This document shows positions 15,795-27,498 of a stretch of 64,000 bases of DNA, in pieces. The number at the start of each line of letters is the position of its first letter. The stretch's first letter is position 1. Origin of the DNA: Crocinitomix algicola (GTDB lineage Bacteria; Bacteroidota; Bacteroidia; Flavobacteriales_D; Crocinitomicaceae). A program made the translations under genes and the position numbers. The notes beneath the pieces are model-generated. The model was not told the origin of the DNA. It ran no database searches and saw only the letters and a list, made by a program, of their open reading frames with translations. The stretch covers positions 1 to 64,000 of the forward strand of contig NZ_LYPF02000015.1 in NCBI RefSeq assembly GCF_001661595.2, in the 5' to 3' direction.

Positions 15795-18700
15795 ATGAAA
15801 AAATTATTACTATTAACCTTAATCATTGGTTCAAACCTGATTTACGCTCAGGATACCACTTTCGTACAAACTTTTACGTACGATTCTATTTCAACAAGAC
15901 GTGCAACATTCCCCTTTCCCGCTGACTTAGAGGGTAAAACATTTGAAAAAGTATTGATGTACTATAACATCAAGTGTGACCCTTTAACTCCATGGGACGG
16001 GTATAATTGTGGTGAATGGGACTATTTGGCTTATTCTCATATTTATGATCATTTAGGAACCTACGACTCCGTTGCAGTTGAAGGACCACGTTATAAAGTA
16101 AATGGCGAATCTCCAGACGTTATACCTTTTGTAAACGAAGCTTATTATAATTATCACCAAAATTACGAGAAGTTTATAACGTATTCTGCTGAATCGGATA
16201 ATGACTACATGATAGGCATGGATGCTTTAACTTCAAACGCTCCTTTTGGCACCAACTCCGCTAATCAACGTACGCAAATATTATGGTTAAATTCCGAATT
16301 AAGCGATGCAGGTGTAAGTGCTGGAGAAATTGCTAAAATACGATTTGATGTTACCGATTTAGGTGAAGCCATGGGACATTTAACGGTAAAAATGAAGCAT
16401 AGTGAAACATCAGAAATCACAGGTTTTGATGACGAGGAATGGATTATTGTCTATGACAGAAATACCAGTTTTGCAGCTGTGGGTAGTAATACATTAAACT
16501 TAACCTATCCTTTTGATTACGACGGAGCATCACATATTTTGATGGATATAAGTTTTAATAATGAAGAAGTATTGGGAGATGACAATAACGTGACTGCATC
16601 TGCAAGTGGTTTCAACAGTGTGATTAGTACCAACGAACAATTAGGATACCTCAACATTGAACCAGGTCAATGGGCACAGGTTGAATTGAGTGATTATGAT
16701 TTTGAAGATCAAGTTACTATTTCATTTTGGTCCAATGGAAACGCCGACCACTTACCTGTTAACACCTCCGTATTAGAAGGAGTTGACAGTTTAAATAACC
16801 GGGTATTTAATATTCATTTCCCTTGGTCGAACAGCCGAATATATTGGGATATCGGAGCAGGATCAGGTTATGACAGAATTGATAAAGAAGCGACAGCGGC
16901 GGAATATGAGGATACTTGGAACCATTGGGCTTTTACAAAAGATGCCACTGCAGGTACATTATCGATATACAAAAATGGAACTTTATGGCACTCTGGAACA
17001 GATTTAACAAGGGCTGCAGGAATTATTAACCGATTAATCCTAGGTACTAACAAAAACTTTGATACAAATTGGGCTGGAAAATTGGATGAATTTAGAATTT
17101 GGGATGTTGCCTTAGACGCTTCTACTATTTCTGATTGGATGAATAAAAAATTAGATCCTTCTCACCCTAATTATTCAAACCTTGTGGTCTATTATGATTT
17201 TGATAACTCCCCTTTAATTCTAGACCGATCTGGCAACAATAGAGATGCTATGGCTAGCGCCACTAATATGATTCAATTTTACGATGGTTCAAATGTAGGA
17301 AGTACTATTTCAACAACGCGACCAAATATCACCTTTGTTCAAGGGACCTATGAGAGTGAACTTGATTCAATCTTGGTCATCGATTCAGTAATGGTAAAAC
17401 CTATTTCTATTATGGAATTTGCGGTGGACGGAAGAAAGTTTGAAATTGTAGATGTATACCATAAGTTCCCAACAGGAACGAGTAAGACTTTTGATCATTT
17501 AGGAGATGAAATATCATCCACAGAAGTTACGGCTGATGGATCTTATGAAAATGAAACAATTGTTTATTATAACGAACCGTATGAGAACATCGTGCAGTAC
17601 GAAATTGGACGATTTATAACGCCTTACGGAATTGGTTTTGATTTAGGTCCAAATGGTTTTACCTATGTTTATGATGTTACAGATTATCAATCATTATTAA
17701 AGGGAGATGTCGATTTTCAAGCGCATAATACGCAAGAGTTAATTGATATTAAATTTGTATTTGTAGAAGGTACACCACCTCGAGATGTCATTTCTTTAGA
17801 GCGATTATGGGATGGAAAGCAAAGTTACCTTTATAAAAACTTAGACGATGATGTTAACTTAACCGCTACAGAAGTTGAATTGGACGCAGCGGGTGAGATG
17901 TTTAAAGTGCGGTCAAGAATTACCGGCCATGGTCATAATGGTTCGAACAACTGTTGTGAATGGGGAGGTGGAAGAGATCATGAATTATACATCGATGGTG
18001 TATTACGCGATGAATGGGAAATTTGGCAAGAAGTAGAATGTGGAGAAAATCCGAATATTAGCCAAGGCGGAACATGGCCGTATGCCCGTGAAGGATGGTG
18101 TCCTGGAGATATTGTTGAGGAGCATGAGTTTGACATCACTCCATTTGTGACACCGGGAACCACCACAACAATTGATTACGATATAGAAGATGTGCCTGCG
18201 GGAGATCCAGACCAAGGTAACGGGAATTATGTTATTGCTATGCATATGGTAACCTACGGTGGAGCAAATTTTGACCTTGACGCAGCTGTAGTCGACGTAT
18301 TAAATCCAAATGATTGGGAATACTACAAAAAATGGAATCCAACTTGTCAAAACCCGCGTGTGATTATTAAAAACACTGGAGCAACTACCTTAACCTCTGC
18401 ACAAATTGATGTTTGGGTGGGAGGATTTGATAACGTTATCACTTTTGATTGGACAGGAGAATTGGCATTTTTAGAAGAGGAAGTAGTTGAAATACCAATT
18501 ACGCCAGAATGGTGGCAAGATTTTGAAGGTAAACTTACATTCAGCGCTCAAATCAGAAATCCAAATTGGGGAGTTGATGAATATAGCAATAATAATGTTT
18601 ACACTGTTAATTTTGAAGCTGCCCCTGTAATCAACGAACCGTTCTTTATTTGGTTTAAAACCAACAATAAAGCCTCAGAAAATAAGCTGTATTTAAGAGA

Positions 18701-19247
18701 TGAGAACGGTGATATTGTTTTCTCGCGTGAGACATTAGAAAATGAAACTGAGTATAGAGACACAATGAATCTTCCAACCGGCTGTTACACGCTTGAACTA
18801 ACAGATAGTGATCATGATGGTATTTCATTCTGGTATTCGGCAGCGGCTGAAGGAGAAACGGCTGGATACCTAAGGTTACGTCAGGTTGGTGGCGGAATGA
18901 TTAAAACGTTTGACCCTGACTTTGGTGCCTATACTAGCTATTCGTTTTCCGTTGGATATGCTGTTGGAATTGATGAAGAAGAGGAGGTAAACTATAACCT
19001 TTCGGTTTATCCAAATCCTAACCAAGGGGAGTTTACTTTAACATTGGATAATTTCATTGGGGAAAATATTGCGCTAGAAATATACAATGAGCTTGGTGCA
19101 AATGTTTACAATGAAAATATTGGAAATATGAATGAAGTTGGATACTTACAAAAAAACATGGACTTAAGTTCACTCTCAGAAGGAGTTTATATCCTCAGAG
19201 TAATATCAGACAAAAAGTCGGTAACACGTCGTATTGTTATTCAATAG
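15795..19247 (+). CDS. Secreted PNGase F-like protein with inserted LamG domain and T9SS sorting domain
   Basis: A secreted protein of 1150 residues. After the signal peptide (1-19) come a PNGase F-type N-domain start (YDSISTRRATFPFP, CGEWDYLAY at 72-80), a LamG/concanavalin-like module (about 285-475, with WNHWAFTKD and KLDEFRIWDVAL), and the resumed PNGase F fold (YEIGRFITPYGIG at 602-614, DVTDYQSLL). The PNGase F C-domain follows (ITGHGHNG, CCEW at 720-723, GWCPG at 767-771), then a beta-sandwich region and a type A sorting domain (last 75 residues). The Asp of CGEWD and Glu of CCEW correspond, from memory, to PNGase F Asp60 and Glu206. It probably removes N-glycans or binds glycoproteins outside the cell. 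Confidence 0.82.
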   Translation: MKKLLLLTLIIGSNLIYAQDTTFVQTFTYDSISTRRATFPFPADLEGKTFEKVLMYYNIKCDPLTPWDGYNCGEWDYLAYSHIYDHLGTYDSVAVEGPRYKVNGESPDVIPFVNEAYYNYHQNYEKFITYSAESDNDYMIGMDALTSNAPFGTNSANQRTQILWLNSELSDAGVSAGEIAKIRFDVTDLGEAMGHLTVKMKHSETSEITGFDDEEWIIVYDRNTSFAAVGSNTLNLTYPFDYDGASHILMDISFNNEEVLGDDNNVTASASGFNSVISTNEQLGYLNIEPGQWAQVELSDYDFEDQVTISFWSNGNADHLPVNTSVLEGVDSLNNRVFNIHFPWSNSRIYWDIGAGSGYDRIDKEATAAEYEDTWNHWAFTKDATAGTLSIYKNGTLWHSGTDLTRAAGIINRLILGTNKNFDTNWAGKLDEFRIWDVALDASTISDWMNKKLDPSHPNYSNLVVYYDFDNSPLILDRSGNNRDAMASATNMIQFYDGSNVGSTISTTRPNITFVQGTYESELDSILVIDSVMVKPISIMEFAVDGRKFEIVDVYHKFPTGTSKTFDHLGDEISSTEVTADGSYENETIVYYNEPYENIVQYEIGRFITPYGIGFDLGPNGFTYVYDVTDYQSLLKGDVDFQAHNTQELIDIKFVFVEGTPPRDVISLERLWDGKQSYLYKNLDDDVNLTATEVELDAAGEMFKVRSRITGHGHNGSNNCCEWGGGRDHELYIDGVLRDEWEIWQEVECGENPNISQGGTWPYAREGWCPGDIVEEHEFDITPFVTPGTTTTIDYDIEDVPAGDPDQGNGNYVIAMHMVTYGGANFDLDAAVVDVLNPNDWEYYKKWNPTCQNPRVIIKNTGATTLTSAQIDVWVGGFDNVITFDWTGELAFLEEEVVEIPITPEWWQDFEGKLTFSAQIRNPNWGVDEYSNNNVYTVNFEAAPVINEPFFIWFKTNNKASENKLYLRDENGDIVFSRETLENETEYRDTMNLPTGCYTLELTDSDHDGISFWYSAAAEGETAGYLRLRQVGGGMIKTFDPDFGAYTSYSFSVGYAVGIDEEEEVNYNLSVYPNPNQGEFTLTLDNFIGENIALEIYNELGANVYNENIGNMNEVGYLQKNMDLSSLSEGVYILRVISDKKSVTRRIVIQ

Positions 19248-19276: not shown

Positions 19277-19309
19277 AAGGGGCTGTCTCAAAAGACAGCC
19301 TCTTTTTTA
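19277..19309. terminator. Terminator after the PNGase F-like gene
   Basis: An 11-bp stem, AGGGGCTGTCT / AGACAGCCTCT (one G-T pair), is followed by TTTTTT. It lies between two convergent genes and its end touches the stop codon of the MepA-like gene. Confidence 0.85.
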
Positions 19310-20044
19310 TTTAAAATCTATATGGTAATGCTCATCATGCAAACTGTTTATTAAAGGAGATAAGGCTTTGGCAAAATAGATGTCTGTTTCTTTTAAAAGA
19401 CGACCGTAGGAAGTAGCAAAAAGCTCATCTTTCAACTCTATTTTAATGATTACTTTTTCAATTCCACTACCCAATTTATTCGCATAATAATTTAATATTA
19501 AAATATGCTGCGCGATTAAGTTGAAATCAATTTCAATTTCCGGGTTACGAGCGTATCGGCCTTCATCACTAAATCTTATGTAATAATGAGCCGCACCCAA
19601 TGTATCTAACCCATAATATGGTTTACCATTTCGTTTTTTCGGCATCATAAAATCAACGCTTTTACCATTTTGATGTGTGCGATGCGGAAAGAAATCTCCT
19701 CCTTTTTCATTTGAGCATTCCATTATACAAAAATACCTGTGGGGCATAAGTTTGTAGAGTGAATCATAAGAATTAAGCACAACAGTTCGAACCATACTAT
19801 TTAAAAAAGCTCTCCCTTCTAAATAACTGTCGCGGTCAAAATAAATGAAATTCTCACCTTTATAAGGCATTAAGACACCATTAATCAAACCACCGTTACT
19901 CACCGAGCCAGTTGAAATACTCTCCGTTTCATTTGACATCTTACGCTGCATGTATTGAGCGATTTCTTGATCAACATTCAAACGGTCTTGTGAAAATGAA
20001 TTAGCGCAACCAAACGCTATTATTGATAAAATAAATCGAATCAT
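19307..20044 (-). CDS. MepA-like penicillin-insensitive murein endopeptidase
   Basis: An exported peptidase of 245 residues with an N-terminal signal (MIRFILSIIAFGCANSFSQ). It shows the M74 (MepA) pattern: SVSNGGLINGVLMP near residue 50, the metal-site motif GGDFFPHRTHQNGKSVDFMMP near 115-135, and the C-terminal HDEHYHIDF, which supplies the last histidines. MepA cleaves the D-Ala-meso-DAP cross-links of peptidoglycan, so this should act in the periplasm during wall remodelling. It stands alone, convergent with the large secreted protein. Confidence 0.85.
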   Translation of the reverse strand: MIRFILSIIAFGCANSFSQDRLNVDQEIAQYMQRKMSNETESISTGSVSNGGLINGVLMPYKGENFIYFDRDSYLEGRAFLNSMVRTVVLNSYDSLYKLMPHRYFCIMECSNEKGGDFFPHRTHQNGKSVDFMMPKKRNGKPYYGLDTLGAAHYYIRFSDEGRYARNPEIEIDFNLIAQHILILNYYANKLGSGIEKVIIKIELKDELFATSYGRLLKETDIYFAKALSPLINSLHDEHYHIDFK

Positions 20045-25125: not shown

Positions 25126-27498
25126 TTATTTTTCAGCGCAGTTTTGACAAAACAATTCAGCAATCTCTTGTTTGGCCAAGCCTCCTACCCCCATTTCATT
25201 CCATTTAAACAGCATACAGAACTCTTCGGGGTAATCTTCAGCTAAATTTTTGATGACATTTTTAATTTTTTTCCACTCTTTTTCTACTTCAAATTGCTGT
25301 AAAAAATAACCTAATTTCAAATATTGCTTGTACAGTTTGGGGAATTCTCCTGAACGCCGTGCAAACTTCGAAAGCAAGACATACGGTTCGGCAGTGTATC
25401 CCCAATCAATCAGGTATTGACAGATAAGGTAGGTAGGCTTAAGATCAAATTTTAGATCGATGACAAATTCCATTATCGAGTCTATCACTTGCTCTGGTTT
25501 GGATTGGAAATTTTCGACAGCATGAATCATGTGTAAACATTCTATCCATCCGACTTGTCTTTTTGCTCGCTCATTTGCTAAAATAGCTTGTTTATTCCCG
25601 TATTTTATATTATTATTTTGATTAAAGAGGTTGAAAAGCAATGCATACTCCAGGTACATTGCATCAGATTTAATTGCTCCTACCTTTTTAAGACGATTTA
25701 AGTCCTCGCTTATCACTGTTTTTTGATTGAGATGCAATCCTAAAACGAATTGATAATAAATTAATTTCTGAAATTTTTCTTCTTCCGGAAATGAAATCTT
25801 TAGCAATTCCTCTCCACTATCTGACACCCCATTTATTGCCCGATTTGCCAAAATTAAATAAAGTGGAGCTGCTTCATTCACTCTGTTTTCGGCTATTAAA
25901 TCGTTTATTCTTTCAACCGACAGTCCATAGAATCCTTCTTCAACTTTATATTCATCTTTAAAAACAATTTTAACAGTAGAATAACGGGACTGATCAAGGA
26001 TTTTCGCAATTTCTTTATCATCTTTATTATCATTGGCGAACATCCGAAGGGTATCATTTGATATTTCAGTTGCATCAACATATCCCGCAGCAACAAGACC
26101 GGACTTAAAATCATCGAAATTTTCGTAAAACTTATTCTCAAAAAGAATCTCTGGATAATACCTTTTTAAGTAATTTTCAATAATCCCTCCTCTTCTAAGA
26201 ATTAATTTACGATTCGATTTTAAATTTCCTTCAATAGACGCGACACCTGTAAAGAAAATTTGTTCAATCTGGTGTTTGTCCCTTACCAAACTATCCATTA
26301 TGGTTATTAGAGGCCTAAAAATGCTCGTATCTTCATCTGTTTGATTCCTCTCGAAACTAATCTGAGTGACTACTGAATCAACAATAGTCAACACTTTATT
26401 TTCACTTAGGCTCGCTTTTGGTAATTGAAAATATTCTTTCGGCTTAAAGTGATCCGGGGTAACAAAAACTGTACTGGTTTGCATGCATTGTTTTTGTCGC
26501 TTCATCAGATGAAAATCAACTTGAAAAAATGAATCCGCGAAAGCCGGTTTAGTTCCAATAAAAACCTTAACTAGATTAGGTGAAGGATGTATGTCATTCA
26601 TTAATACCTCTCTTTTTGTAAGGTAACCGATGTAATAACCGTTGTGGTAAAGTGAATTATGGAAACTTGGTTTACCACCACAATCGAACTGTTCATGATG
26701 CAAAACATCAAAAGTTAATTGACCATTGGCTTTAAAGACTTTATTGAGATTATTTTTTTTAGCGTTGAATAGATATTTTTCTTTCTTTTTTCGGTAAAAT
26801 CTACCTTTACGATAATAATTGGTATTCCAATAAAAAATAGAATCATTAGAGACAGAATACCATCCTAATGAAACCTCATCATTATAAATTTTTTCTTTGA
26901 CTTGTTTACAGTTTAGACATTCTCCCCCTTCTTTAACACTTAAATTCCCTCCTTTTATAAATTCATATTGTTCAACGAATGGTTTGGACCCAAAAACTTG
27001 GCAGGTAAAAAGCGTTCCGTCTTGAAGTCTGAATTCGTGAGCAATGTTGGCATATTTAGCTTCTAGTAGATTTTCTTTGTGACCTCTTGATTTGGACCAG
27101 TCTTTGACCATATCTTTGGCAAGACGCTCATAAGTCAACCTGTTTTTTGACTTTTTCACGGCTCTTGCTAGGTCAAATGCCATGACATTTTCCCCCACTG
27201 CATTATGAGACCCTCCGTAATAAAGTACTCTTTTATAAGGCGATCCTTTTAGTTTAGATTTTTGTCCATGTCCTATTTGTTGCTTATCAGCCATGTAATT
27301 TGCCTGATCTTTTGCAGCTTTTGCCAAGATTTCGTCATTCACTAAAGTGTCAAGTCTTTTACGTGCTCGAAATTTATTAACCTCTGCTCTCAAATACTCA
27401 GCGAGTAATTCTTCATTGAAAGATTTCAGGTCAACCTTTTCATTCTGTCCATAACTTAAAACTGGAATGAGCAACCATATGAACAGGATCTTCTTCAT
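25126..27498 (-). CDS. CAP-domain protein with degenerate OmpA-like region
   Basis: A secreted protein of 790 residues. After the signal peptide (1-17) is a CAP/SCP-PR1 domain at about 25-170 (GHGQ at 77-80, GGSHNAVGENV at 95-105, SRGHKENLL at 138-145). Then come a Cys-x-x-Cys pair at 194/197, a beta-rich middle, and an OmpA-like region at about 385-515 (FFTGVASIEGN followed by a basic helix, ending SRYSTVKIVF). The C-terminal half is helical and TPR-like and ends in FCQNC. CAP domains occur in many bacterial secreted proteins without a firm function. No T9SS domain is present. It begins immediately after the stop of the upstream gene. Confidence 0.7.
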   Translation of the reverse strand: MKKILFIWLLIPVLSYGQNEKVDLKSFNEELLAEYLRAEVNKFRARKRLDTLVNDEILAKAAKDQANYMADKQQIGHGQKSKLKGSPYKRVLYYGGSHNAVGENVMAFDLARAVKKSKNRLTYERLAKDMVKDWSKSRGHKENLLEAKYANIAHEFRLQDGTLFTCQVFGSKPFVEQYEFIKGGNLSVKEGGECLNCKQVKEKIYNDEVSLGWYSVSNDSIFYWNTNYYRKGRFYRKKKEKYLFNAKKNNLNKVFKANGQLTFDVLHHEQFDCGGKPSFHNSLYHNGYYIGYLTKREVLMNDIHPSPNLVKVFIGTKPAFADSFFQVDFHLMKRQKQCMQTSTVFVTPDHFKPKEYFQLPKASLSENKVLTIVDSVVTQISFERNQTDEDTSIFRPLITIMDSLVRDKHQIEQIFFTGVASIEGNLKSNRKLILRRGGIIENYLKRYYPEILFENKFYENFDDFKSGLVAAGYVDATEISNDTLRMFANDNKDDKEIAKILDQSRYSTVKIVFKDEYKVEEGFYGLSVERINDLIAENRVNEAAPLYLILANRAINGVSDSGEELLKISFPEEEKFQKLIYYQFVLGLHLNQKTVISEDLNRLKKVGAIKSDAMYLEYALLFNLFNQNNNIKYGNKQAILANERAKRQVGWIECLHMIHAVENFQSKPEQVIDSIMEFVIDLKFDLKPTYLICQYLIDWGYTAEPYVLLSKFARRSGEFPKLYKQYLKLGYFLQQFEVEKEWKKIKNVIKNLAEDYPEEFCMLFKWNEMGVGGLAKQEIAELFCQNCAEK

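What the first reader, a model, noticed from the sequence alone, without database searches (positions are those of the whole stretch)
15795..19247. PNGase F fold interrupted by a LamG module and exported by T9SS
Seen: the PNGase F N-domain starts (CGEWDYLAY at 72-80), is then interrupted by about 520 residues containing a LamG domain, and resumes with YEIGRFITPYGIG and DVTDYQSLL, which match adjacent parts of PNGase F as I remember it. The C-domain keeps CCEW and GWCPG. The Glu118 region of PNGase F (TETW) has no obvious match. Inference: a lectin-like module set into a de-N-glycosylating enzyme may target it to a glycoprotein or polysaccharide surface, or the enzyme may have become a binding protein.
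Basis: partly seen in the sequence, partly recalled or inferred. Interest (0 to 1): 0.6.

Follow-up and report, generated by a model that had tools for sequence, protein, structure and literature searches.

The report
PNGase F enzyme carrying nested LamG module
This bacterial protein is a relative of the sugar-removing enzyme PNGase F whose chain is interrupted, inside one loop, by a separately folding lectin-like module; about a quarter of sampled Bacteroidia species carry it, it is predicted to be exported to the cell surface, and what it acts on has not been tested as far as we could find.

Summary
Window 15795-19247 encodes a 1150-residue protein of a Crocinitomix-like Flavobacteriales bacterium, with a signal peptide and a type IX secretion (T9SS) tail. 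Residues 20-77 and 597-840 are the two parts of one PNGase F fold (profile comparison after removing the middle: 282 columns, probability 100%). Homologues without the insert join these parts through a link of about 20-25 residues. The insert is nested. An older 123-residue extension (residues 78-123 plus 526-596) is found alone in other Bacteroidia. Inside it sits a module of about 400 residues (beta-sandwich plus LamG), predicted to fold on its own (pLDDT 93.5). About 95 of 396 sampled Bacteroidia genomes, in at least 22 families, carry the whole design, usually once, with no conserved gene cluster found. The catalytic pair of PNGase F (Asp60/Glu206, here D76/E722) is invariant. The Glu118 loop is deleted in the whole clade, but active relatives also lack Glu118: type II PNGases and zebrafish Ngly2 (Ngly2 by the alignment made here). 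Loss of activity therefore does not follow. Best reading: a surface glycoamidase with changed glycan recognition and a built-in binding module. Function is untested. New variant of a known kind.

The parts
15795..19247 (+). Whole gene, 1150 aa, including stop codon
   Evidence: ORF and translation; homologues in 46 of 59 relatives at E <= 1e-10, many of them full length
15795..15848 (+). Predicted signal peptide (residues 1-18, MKKLLLLTLIIGSNLIYA)
   Evidence: Sequence itself: basic start, hydrophobic core, small residue before QDTT; no signal-peptide program was run
15852..16025 (+). First part of the PNGase F N-domain (residues 20-77) with CGEWDY; the most conserved stretch together with 597-665
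   Evidence: hhalign 97.3% to the PNGase F family profile; conservation 0.80
16020..16022 (+). D76, equivalent of catalytic Asp60 of PNGase F
   Evidence: Invariant in A1, A2 and all 90 rows of the tree set
16026..16163 (+). Older loop extension, first half (residues 78-123)
   Evidence: Aligns with positions 1-46 of the 123-residue loop of mid-length homologues, 97.8%
16164..17369 (+). Nested module, about residues 124-525: beta-sandwich (124-292) plus LamG plus short return, between two long strands (118-140, 512-533) that look like a ribbon stalk
   Evidence: Absent from homologues with 123-residue loops; residues 112-540 predicted alone at pLDDT 93.5, pTM 0.86; strands from the full-length model
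16677..17132 (+). LamG domain (Laminin_G_3, residues 295-446) with conserved N-x-H-x-PW..N..YWD.G..DRI signature
   Evidence: Pfam E 8e-16; present in all 23 homologues scanned
17370..17582 (+). Older loop extension, second half (residues 526-596)
   Evidence: Aligns with positions 48-123 of the 123-residue loop, 98.8%
17583..17789 (+). Second part of the PNGase F N-domain (residues 597-665: EIGRFITPYGIG, DVTDY, NTQELIDIKF)
   Evidence: phmmer to 3pms/1pnf from residue 601; conservation 0.81
17733..17738 (+). Q647-E648, next to the deleted Glu118 loop; E648 invariant and Q647 at least 90% in A2
   Evidence: Alignments
17790..18314 (+). PNGase F C-domain (residues 666-840; Pfam PF09113 at 690-814)
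   Evidence: Pfam 42.2 bits, cut-off 25; Foldseek 1pgs E 4e-10
17958..17960 (+). E722, equivalent of catalytic Glu206 of PNGase F
   Evidence: Invariant in A1, A2 and all 90 rows
18315..18959 (+). Two beta-domains between the enzyme and the tail (residues 841-1055); no Pfam family found
   Evidence: Model secondary structure; residues about 852-1149 recur in other proteins
19005..19244 (+). T9SS type A sorting domain (residues 1071-1150)
   Evidence: Pfam E 1.4e-17, NCBIfam TIGR04183 E 5.4e-16

Best explanation
The protein is an exported, probably surface-held member of the PNGase F fold family. Shown by sequence: the N-domain is split between the strand that starts at the catalytic Asp and the EIGRFITPY strand, and the gap holds an older 123-residue extension into which a self-folding beta-sandwich plus LamG module was set. 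Inferred: the two PNGase parts come together to form a working active site from D76 and E722, which cleaves the amide bond between Asn and the first sugar of a glycan. Inferred: because the Glu118 loop is deleted, R61 is replaced by Tyr and W191 by His, it accepts a different glycan core from PNGase F, possibly one with core alpha-1,3-fucose. Inferred: the LamG module, held away from the enzyme on a two-stranded ribbon, binds a glycoprotein or polysaccharide surface and keeps the enzyme on its target. The architecture is about 95% certain; the enzymatic role about 60%.
For: Split fold: joined halves against the PNGase F family profile 100%, score 400, against 334 for the C-half and 69 for the N-half, collinear. 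Uninserted homologues with the same motifs, several with the same C-terminal domains and tail (L039, L040), lie in the sister part of the tree. Nesting: both flanks of the module match the 123-residue loop, joined 99.5% over 122 columns, controls at most 0.3%. Autonomous module: pLDDT 93.5, pTM 0.86. Activity: equivalents of D60, E206, W59, R248 and W251 are invariant across the CxxWDY clade, and the two split N-parts are the most conserved stretches of the protein (0.80 and 0.81). Zebrafish Ngly2, shown to be an active PNGase that loses activity when Asp421 or Glu555 is mutated (PMC12753239), shares TGHG...NCxEFC and has no Glu118. Type II PNGases with Gly at the Glu118 position are active and accept core alpha-1,3-fucose (PMC9522356). 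Export: signal peptide, T9SS tail, SprA translocon, 133 tail matches in the genome.
Against: No activity is known for any member of the CxxWDY clade in the literature found. The Glu118/Trp120 loop is deleted outright, not only substituted, and Arg61 is Tyr throughout. The gene is not in a glycan-utilisation cluster and no conserved neighbours were found. The Pfam N-domain model stays below its cut-off (12.9 against 22.4 bits). Without model coordinates the geometry of the active site was not checked.
Confidence: 0.6

Rival explanations
1. A pseudoenzyme turned binding protein: the PNGase F fold no longer cleaves and serves, with LamG, as a surface adhesin or polysaccharide-binding protein.
For: The Glu118/Trp120 loop is deleted, R61 is Tyr and W191 is His. 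No conserved neighbours or glycan-utilisation cluster were found. The whole protein is rich in beta-domains as in adhesins.
Against: D60 and E206 equivalents are invariant in all 51 LamG-bearing sequences, from more than 20 families and often only 30-45% identical to the window protein, and the parts around them are the best conserved of the protein. W191 as His and loss of Glu118 occur in active Ngly2 (PMC12753239).
Confidence: 0.25
2. An active amidase of the same fold with a substrate other than eukaryotic N-glycans, for example another Asn-linked sugar or a different glycosylamide.
For: Of the three residues that contact the chitobiose core in PNGase F (W59, R61, W191; PMC12753239), only W59 is kept. 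The protein is mostly single-copy and widely spread in Bacteroidia, as might be expected of a common substrate rather than a host-specific one.
Against: Ngly2 has similar replacements and still takes N-glycans (PMC12753239). A GH92 mannosidase, a sugar transporter and a ROK kinase elsewhere in the genome fit use of N-glycan mannose, weakly.
Confidence: 0.13
3. Two unrelated proteins or domains fused side by side; the CGEWDY resemblance is chance.
For: The N-half alone is below significance in HMMER searches against PNGase F sequences.
Against: N-half 97.3% against the family profile, in register; uninserted homologues contain both parts contiguously; the motif is invariant.
Confidence: 0.02

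Closest known systems
PNGase F, Elizabethkingia meningoseptica (PDB 1PNF, 1PGS, 3PMS)
   Same: Two jelly-roll domains, catalytic Asp and Glu, W59, R248, W251, GWCPG; best solved relative by sequence, and by fold for the enzyme part
   Different: PNGase F has a short turn where this protein has about 520 residues; it keeps Glu118, Arg61 and Trp191, which are absent here; the 314-residue PDB chain has no LamG and no T9SS tail
Type II PNGases: PNGF-II (4R4X) and B. massiliensis PNGase (7ZGN)
   Same: Same fold; no Glu at the Glu118 position (PMC9522356)
   Different: They carry an N-terminal bowl-like domain; profile matches here cover only their catalytic part; no LamG
Zebrafish Ngly2 acid PNGase (9LWG)
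   Same: Active PNGase of this fold; shares TGHG and NCxEFC, His at the W191 position, no Glu118
   Different: Its partner domains are thioredoxin-like and protease-associated, placed before the enzyme, not inside it (PMC12753239)
LamG-first PNGase-like proteins of Flavobacteriales (L032, L034, L035, L036, L038; no name found)
   Same: LamG-like region plus PNGase F fold, most with a T9SS-type tail
   Different: The LamG-like region lies before an unbroken PNGase domain; they branch outside the CxxWDY clade. LamG in them was recognised by eye, not by a Pfam search
BACOVA_03559, putative carbohydrate-binding protein (4DQA)
   Same: Best fold match of the inserted module (E 1.5e-12, 418 columns)
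   Different: Not inserted in an enzyme; 13% identity, rmsd 12.8, so only the general domain type is shared

Membership tests
PNGase F fold family (Pfam N-glycanase N and C) | C-domain above the Pfam gathering score | tested here: met
   42.2 bits, cut-off 25; 23 of 23 homologues matched at E <= 0.001
PNGase F fold family (Pfam N-glycanase N and C) | N-domain above the Pfam gathering score as the sequence stands | tested here: not met
   12.9 bits, cut-off 22.4; the model is broken by the insert
PNGase F fold family (Pfam N-glycanase N and C) | N-domain present when the insert is set aside | tested here: met
   Profile comparison 100% over 282 columns; uninserted homologues
PNGase F fold family (Pfam N-glycanase N and C) | Catalytic Asp60 and Glu206 | tested here: met
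   D76 and E722, invariant
Type I PNGase (PNGase F proper) | Glu118 (or Asp) in the active site loop | tested here: not met
   Loop deleted in all 55 rows of the clade
Type I PNGase (PNGase F proper) | Chitobiose contacts W59, R61, W191 | tested here: not met
   W59 kept, R61 to Tyr, W191 to His in all 55 rows of the clade
Type II PNGase | N-terminal bowl-like domain before the catalytic domain | tested here: not met
   The catalytic fold starts at about residue 20; the match to 4r4x covers only its residues 396-506
Any PNGase | Cleaves the Asn-GlcNAc amide bond | not testable with these tools
   Needs an assay
Laminin_G_3 (LamG) domain | Pfam match above gathering score | tested here: met
   59 bits, cut-off 27.6
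Laminin_G_3 (LamG) domain | Binds carbohydrate | not testable with these tools
   Needs a binding assay
T9SS type A cargo | C-terminal sorting domain and a T9SS in the genome | tested here: met
   Tail; SprA 2363 bits
Polysaccharide or N-glycan utilisation locus gene | Neighbouring SusC/D or glycoside hydrolases, conserved | tested here: not met
   Neighbours are housekeeping or unrelated genes; no conserved neighbour found in 80 loci

The most novel reading that the evidence does not exclude
A previously undescribed family of surface PNGases, spread through the class Bacteroidia, in which a lectin-like module was inserted once inside an earlier insertion in the catalytic domain; the family has a glycan-core specificity unlike PNGase F and removes N-glycans from native glycoproteins of aquatic organisms at the cell surface.
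Probability: 0.33. Interest if true: 0.68.

Novelty: new variant of a known kind. Interest (0 to 1): 0.52.

Why it matters
PNGase F is the standard tool for removing N-glycans, and the known alternatives that accept cores with alpha-1,3-fucose each have limits of pH, expression or substrate state (PMC10154615). A family carrying the same catalytic pair with a different recognition loop, found in roughly a quarter of sampled Bacteroidia, is a clear place to look. It also shows the possible intermediate stages of a nested domain insertion in living relatives (loops of about 20, 50, 130 and 530 residues), which are seldom found together. It raises the question of how much N-glycoprotein is consumed by free-living Bacteroidia outside the known utilisation loci.

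Tried and rejected
Pfam alone: the N-glycanase_N model is below cut-off and finds only residues 599-640, so it cannot show the split. Foldseek of the full model: the PNGase F match covers 245 columns, which the part after residue 596 can explain alone, so it is not proof that the N-half joins. Many hits of the LamG module to pentraxins and to the cell-binding domains of clostridial neurotoxins reflect the common jelly-roll fold and were not taken as functional. A weak Pfam match to a galactose-binding domain in two homologues overlaps the T9SS tail in the one located, below cut-off, and was dismissed. Conserved gene neighbours were sought and not found; the second largest cluster (50 loci) was taken to be reverse-strand frames of the gene itself. 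Literature searches for PNGase F with LamG or T9SS found nothing relevant.

Full report
WHAT IS THERE. The reading frame at 15795-19247 encodes 1150 residues. Pfam finds LamG at 295-446, the PNGase F C-domain at 690-814 and a T9SS sorting domain at 1071-1149. The N-domain model gives only a sub-threshold fragment at 599-640. phmmer against the PDB finds PNGase F at residues 601-840 (E 9e-15), with a collinear but insignificant piece at 34-79 in which CGEWD sits on CDEWD of PNGase F. The genome is that of a Crocinitomix-like bacterium: the nearest named record is an uncultured Crocinitomix sp., with a 71% identical homologue.

IS THE FOLD REALLY SPLIT. The columns for residues 20-90 and 598-830 of 75 homologues were joined in a script and compared with a profile of PNGase F plus nine homologues that lack the insert. 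The result was probability 100%, 282 columns, score 400. The C-half alone scored 334 and the N-half alone 69 (97.3%, E 2e-11 for one comparison), both in the expected register. Against the single PNGase F sequence the joined form gave 99.7% and the N-half alone 69.7%. The strongest evidence is living relatives. In L032-L040, L142, L144, L178, L179 and L185 the C-x-x-W-D motif is followed after 23-29 residues by the ITPY strand. L039 and L040 also share the C-terminal domains and tail of the window protein.

THE INSERT IS NESTED. The distance from the catalytic Asp to the ITPY motif falls into classes: about 20-30, 49-55, 130-131 and 527-546 residues. The loop of the third class is 122 or 123 residues long in all eleven sequences examined. 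Its first 46 positions match residues 78-123 of the window protein (97.8%), and positions 48-123 match residues 526-596 (98.8%). Joined, they match at 99.5% over 122 columns, while three control regions of the same protein gave at most 0.3%. So a module of about residues 124-525 sits inside an older extension, which sits inside the PNGase F N-domain. AlphaFold2 gives the full protein a mean pLDDT of 87.3 (pTM 0.59), with two long strands at 118-140 and 512-533 that look like a ribbon-shaped stalk (that these two strands pair is inferred). Residues 112-540 alone are predicted with pLDDT 93.5 and pTM 0.86, so the module probably folds on its own.

HISTORY AND SPREAD. In a tree of 90 PNGase domains (318 kept columns, the loop cut out), the sequences with C-x-x-W-D-Y form one group of 74 (SH-aLRT 99). 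Inside it, a group of 55 (SH-aLRT 100) holds all 51 LamG-bearing proteins plus four with loops of about 52 or 130 residues. LamG presence needs two changes on the tree as found, and starred branches force one. The best tree with all LamG-bearing rows together is not worse: its likelihood is 5.1 higher, AU p 0.58. One origin is therefore compatible with the data. The tree does not prove the direction of change; the words 'older' and 'inserted' rest on the wider spread of the short forms and on the nesting. In a sample of 396 Bacteroidia genomes, 186 have a match to the family profile at E <= 1e-100. About 95 of these match nearly the whole 1147-position profile, LamG included, across at least 22 families and mostly in single copy (my count of the listed rows). 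Among 59 relatives, 46 have a match at E <= 1e-10.

ACTIVE SITE. Equivalents of Asp60, Glu206 and Trp251 are invariant in all 90 rows. Trp59 and Arg248 equivalents are invariant in the C-x-x-W-D-Y group. Arg61 is Tyr in all 74 members of that group. Trp191 is His everywhere except in PNGase F and L037. The loop with Glu118 and Trp120 is shortened in all 55 rows of the LamG group, where G/H-N-x-Q-E is typical; E648 is invariant in the 75-sequence alignment and Q647 at least 90%. As an argument for lost activity it is weak. Type II PNGases have Gly at this position and are thought to use another Glu, which makes room for core alpha-1,3-fucose (PMC9522356). Zebrafish Ngly2 is an active PNGase of this fold that depends on the same Asp and Glu (PMC12753239); in the alignment it has W-D-H-T, T-A-P-W in place of T-E-T-W, and TGHG with NCGEFC, so it too lacks Glu118 and Trp191. 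That paper's text pairs the residues somewhat differently (Trp420 with Trp191); the pairing used here follows adjacency to Asp421 and the alignments. The two N-domain parts are the most conserved stretches of the protein (mean top-residue frequency 0.80 and 0.81, against 0.44-0.54 for the extension and 0.63 for LamG).

SURROUNDINGS. The neighbours are coaBC, recN, DUF4835, DUF4476, DUF423, a cysteine desulfurase-like gene and gliding-type ABC transporter genes (recN and the gliding genes named from the sequence). None is a glycan-utilisation gene, and no conserved neighbour was found across 80 related loci with 3 kb flanks. The genome has the SprA translocon and 133 matches to the sorting domain. 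A single GH92 alpha-mannosidase gene lies on another contig next to what look like a sugar transporter and a ROK-family kinase, which is at most weak support for use of N-glycan mannose.

MECHANISM. Shown: composition, split, nesting, conservation, sorting signal. Inferred: secretion, assembly of the active site from the two halves, amide cleavage, altered core specificity, and targeting by LamG. The main rival is a pseudoenzyme. It is disfavoured because the catalytic pair has not drifted in more than 20 families, and only an assay can settle it.

LIMITS. No coordinates of the models were available, so the N-half was not superposed on PNGase F, and Foldseek's match (1pgs, E 4e-10, 245 columns) can be explained by the later part alone. 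The profile used for the N-half test contained two members of the same group as the window protein (L039, L040). Genomes in the class search carry codes, not names.

Noticed in passing
L032, L034, L035, L036, L038: A second, separate pairing of a LamG-like region with a PNGase F fold: here it lies at the N-terminus and the PNGase domain is unbroken; L033 has a different N-terminal region (looks discoidin-like) instead.
   Followed up: partly
L121 (422 aa): A Bacteroides-type PNGase has about 55 residues between its catalytic Asp and the TPF motif, so the same loop has grown in another branch of the family too.
   Followed up: partly
window 19307-20044 (-): No Pfam match, but HRTHQNGKSVDF and HDEHYHIDF look like the zinc site of a MepA-like murein endopeptidase (recognised by eye).
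   Followed up: no
window 25126-27498 (-): 790-residue protein with a CAP (cysteine-rich secretory protein) domain at residues 39-152 and a long uncharacterised remainder.
   Followed up: no
L191 5062-10393 (G000 contig C13): GH92 alpha-mannosidase next to what look like a GluP/FucP-type sugar transporter and a ROK-family kinase: a small mannoside-use cluster with no SusC/D pair in view.
   Followed up: partly
residues about 852-1149 of the window protein; places listed: The two C-terminal beta-domains plus tail recur in other proteins of the relatives, as a movable C-terminal unit without a Pfam name of its own apart from the tail.
   Followed up: no
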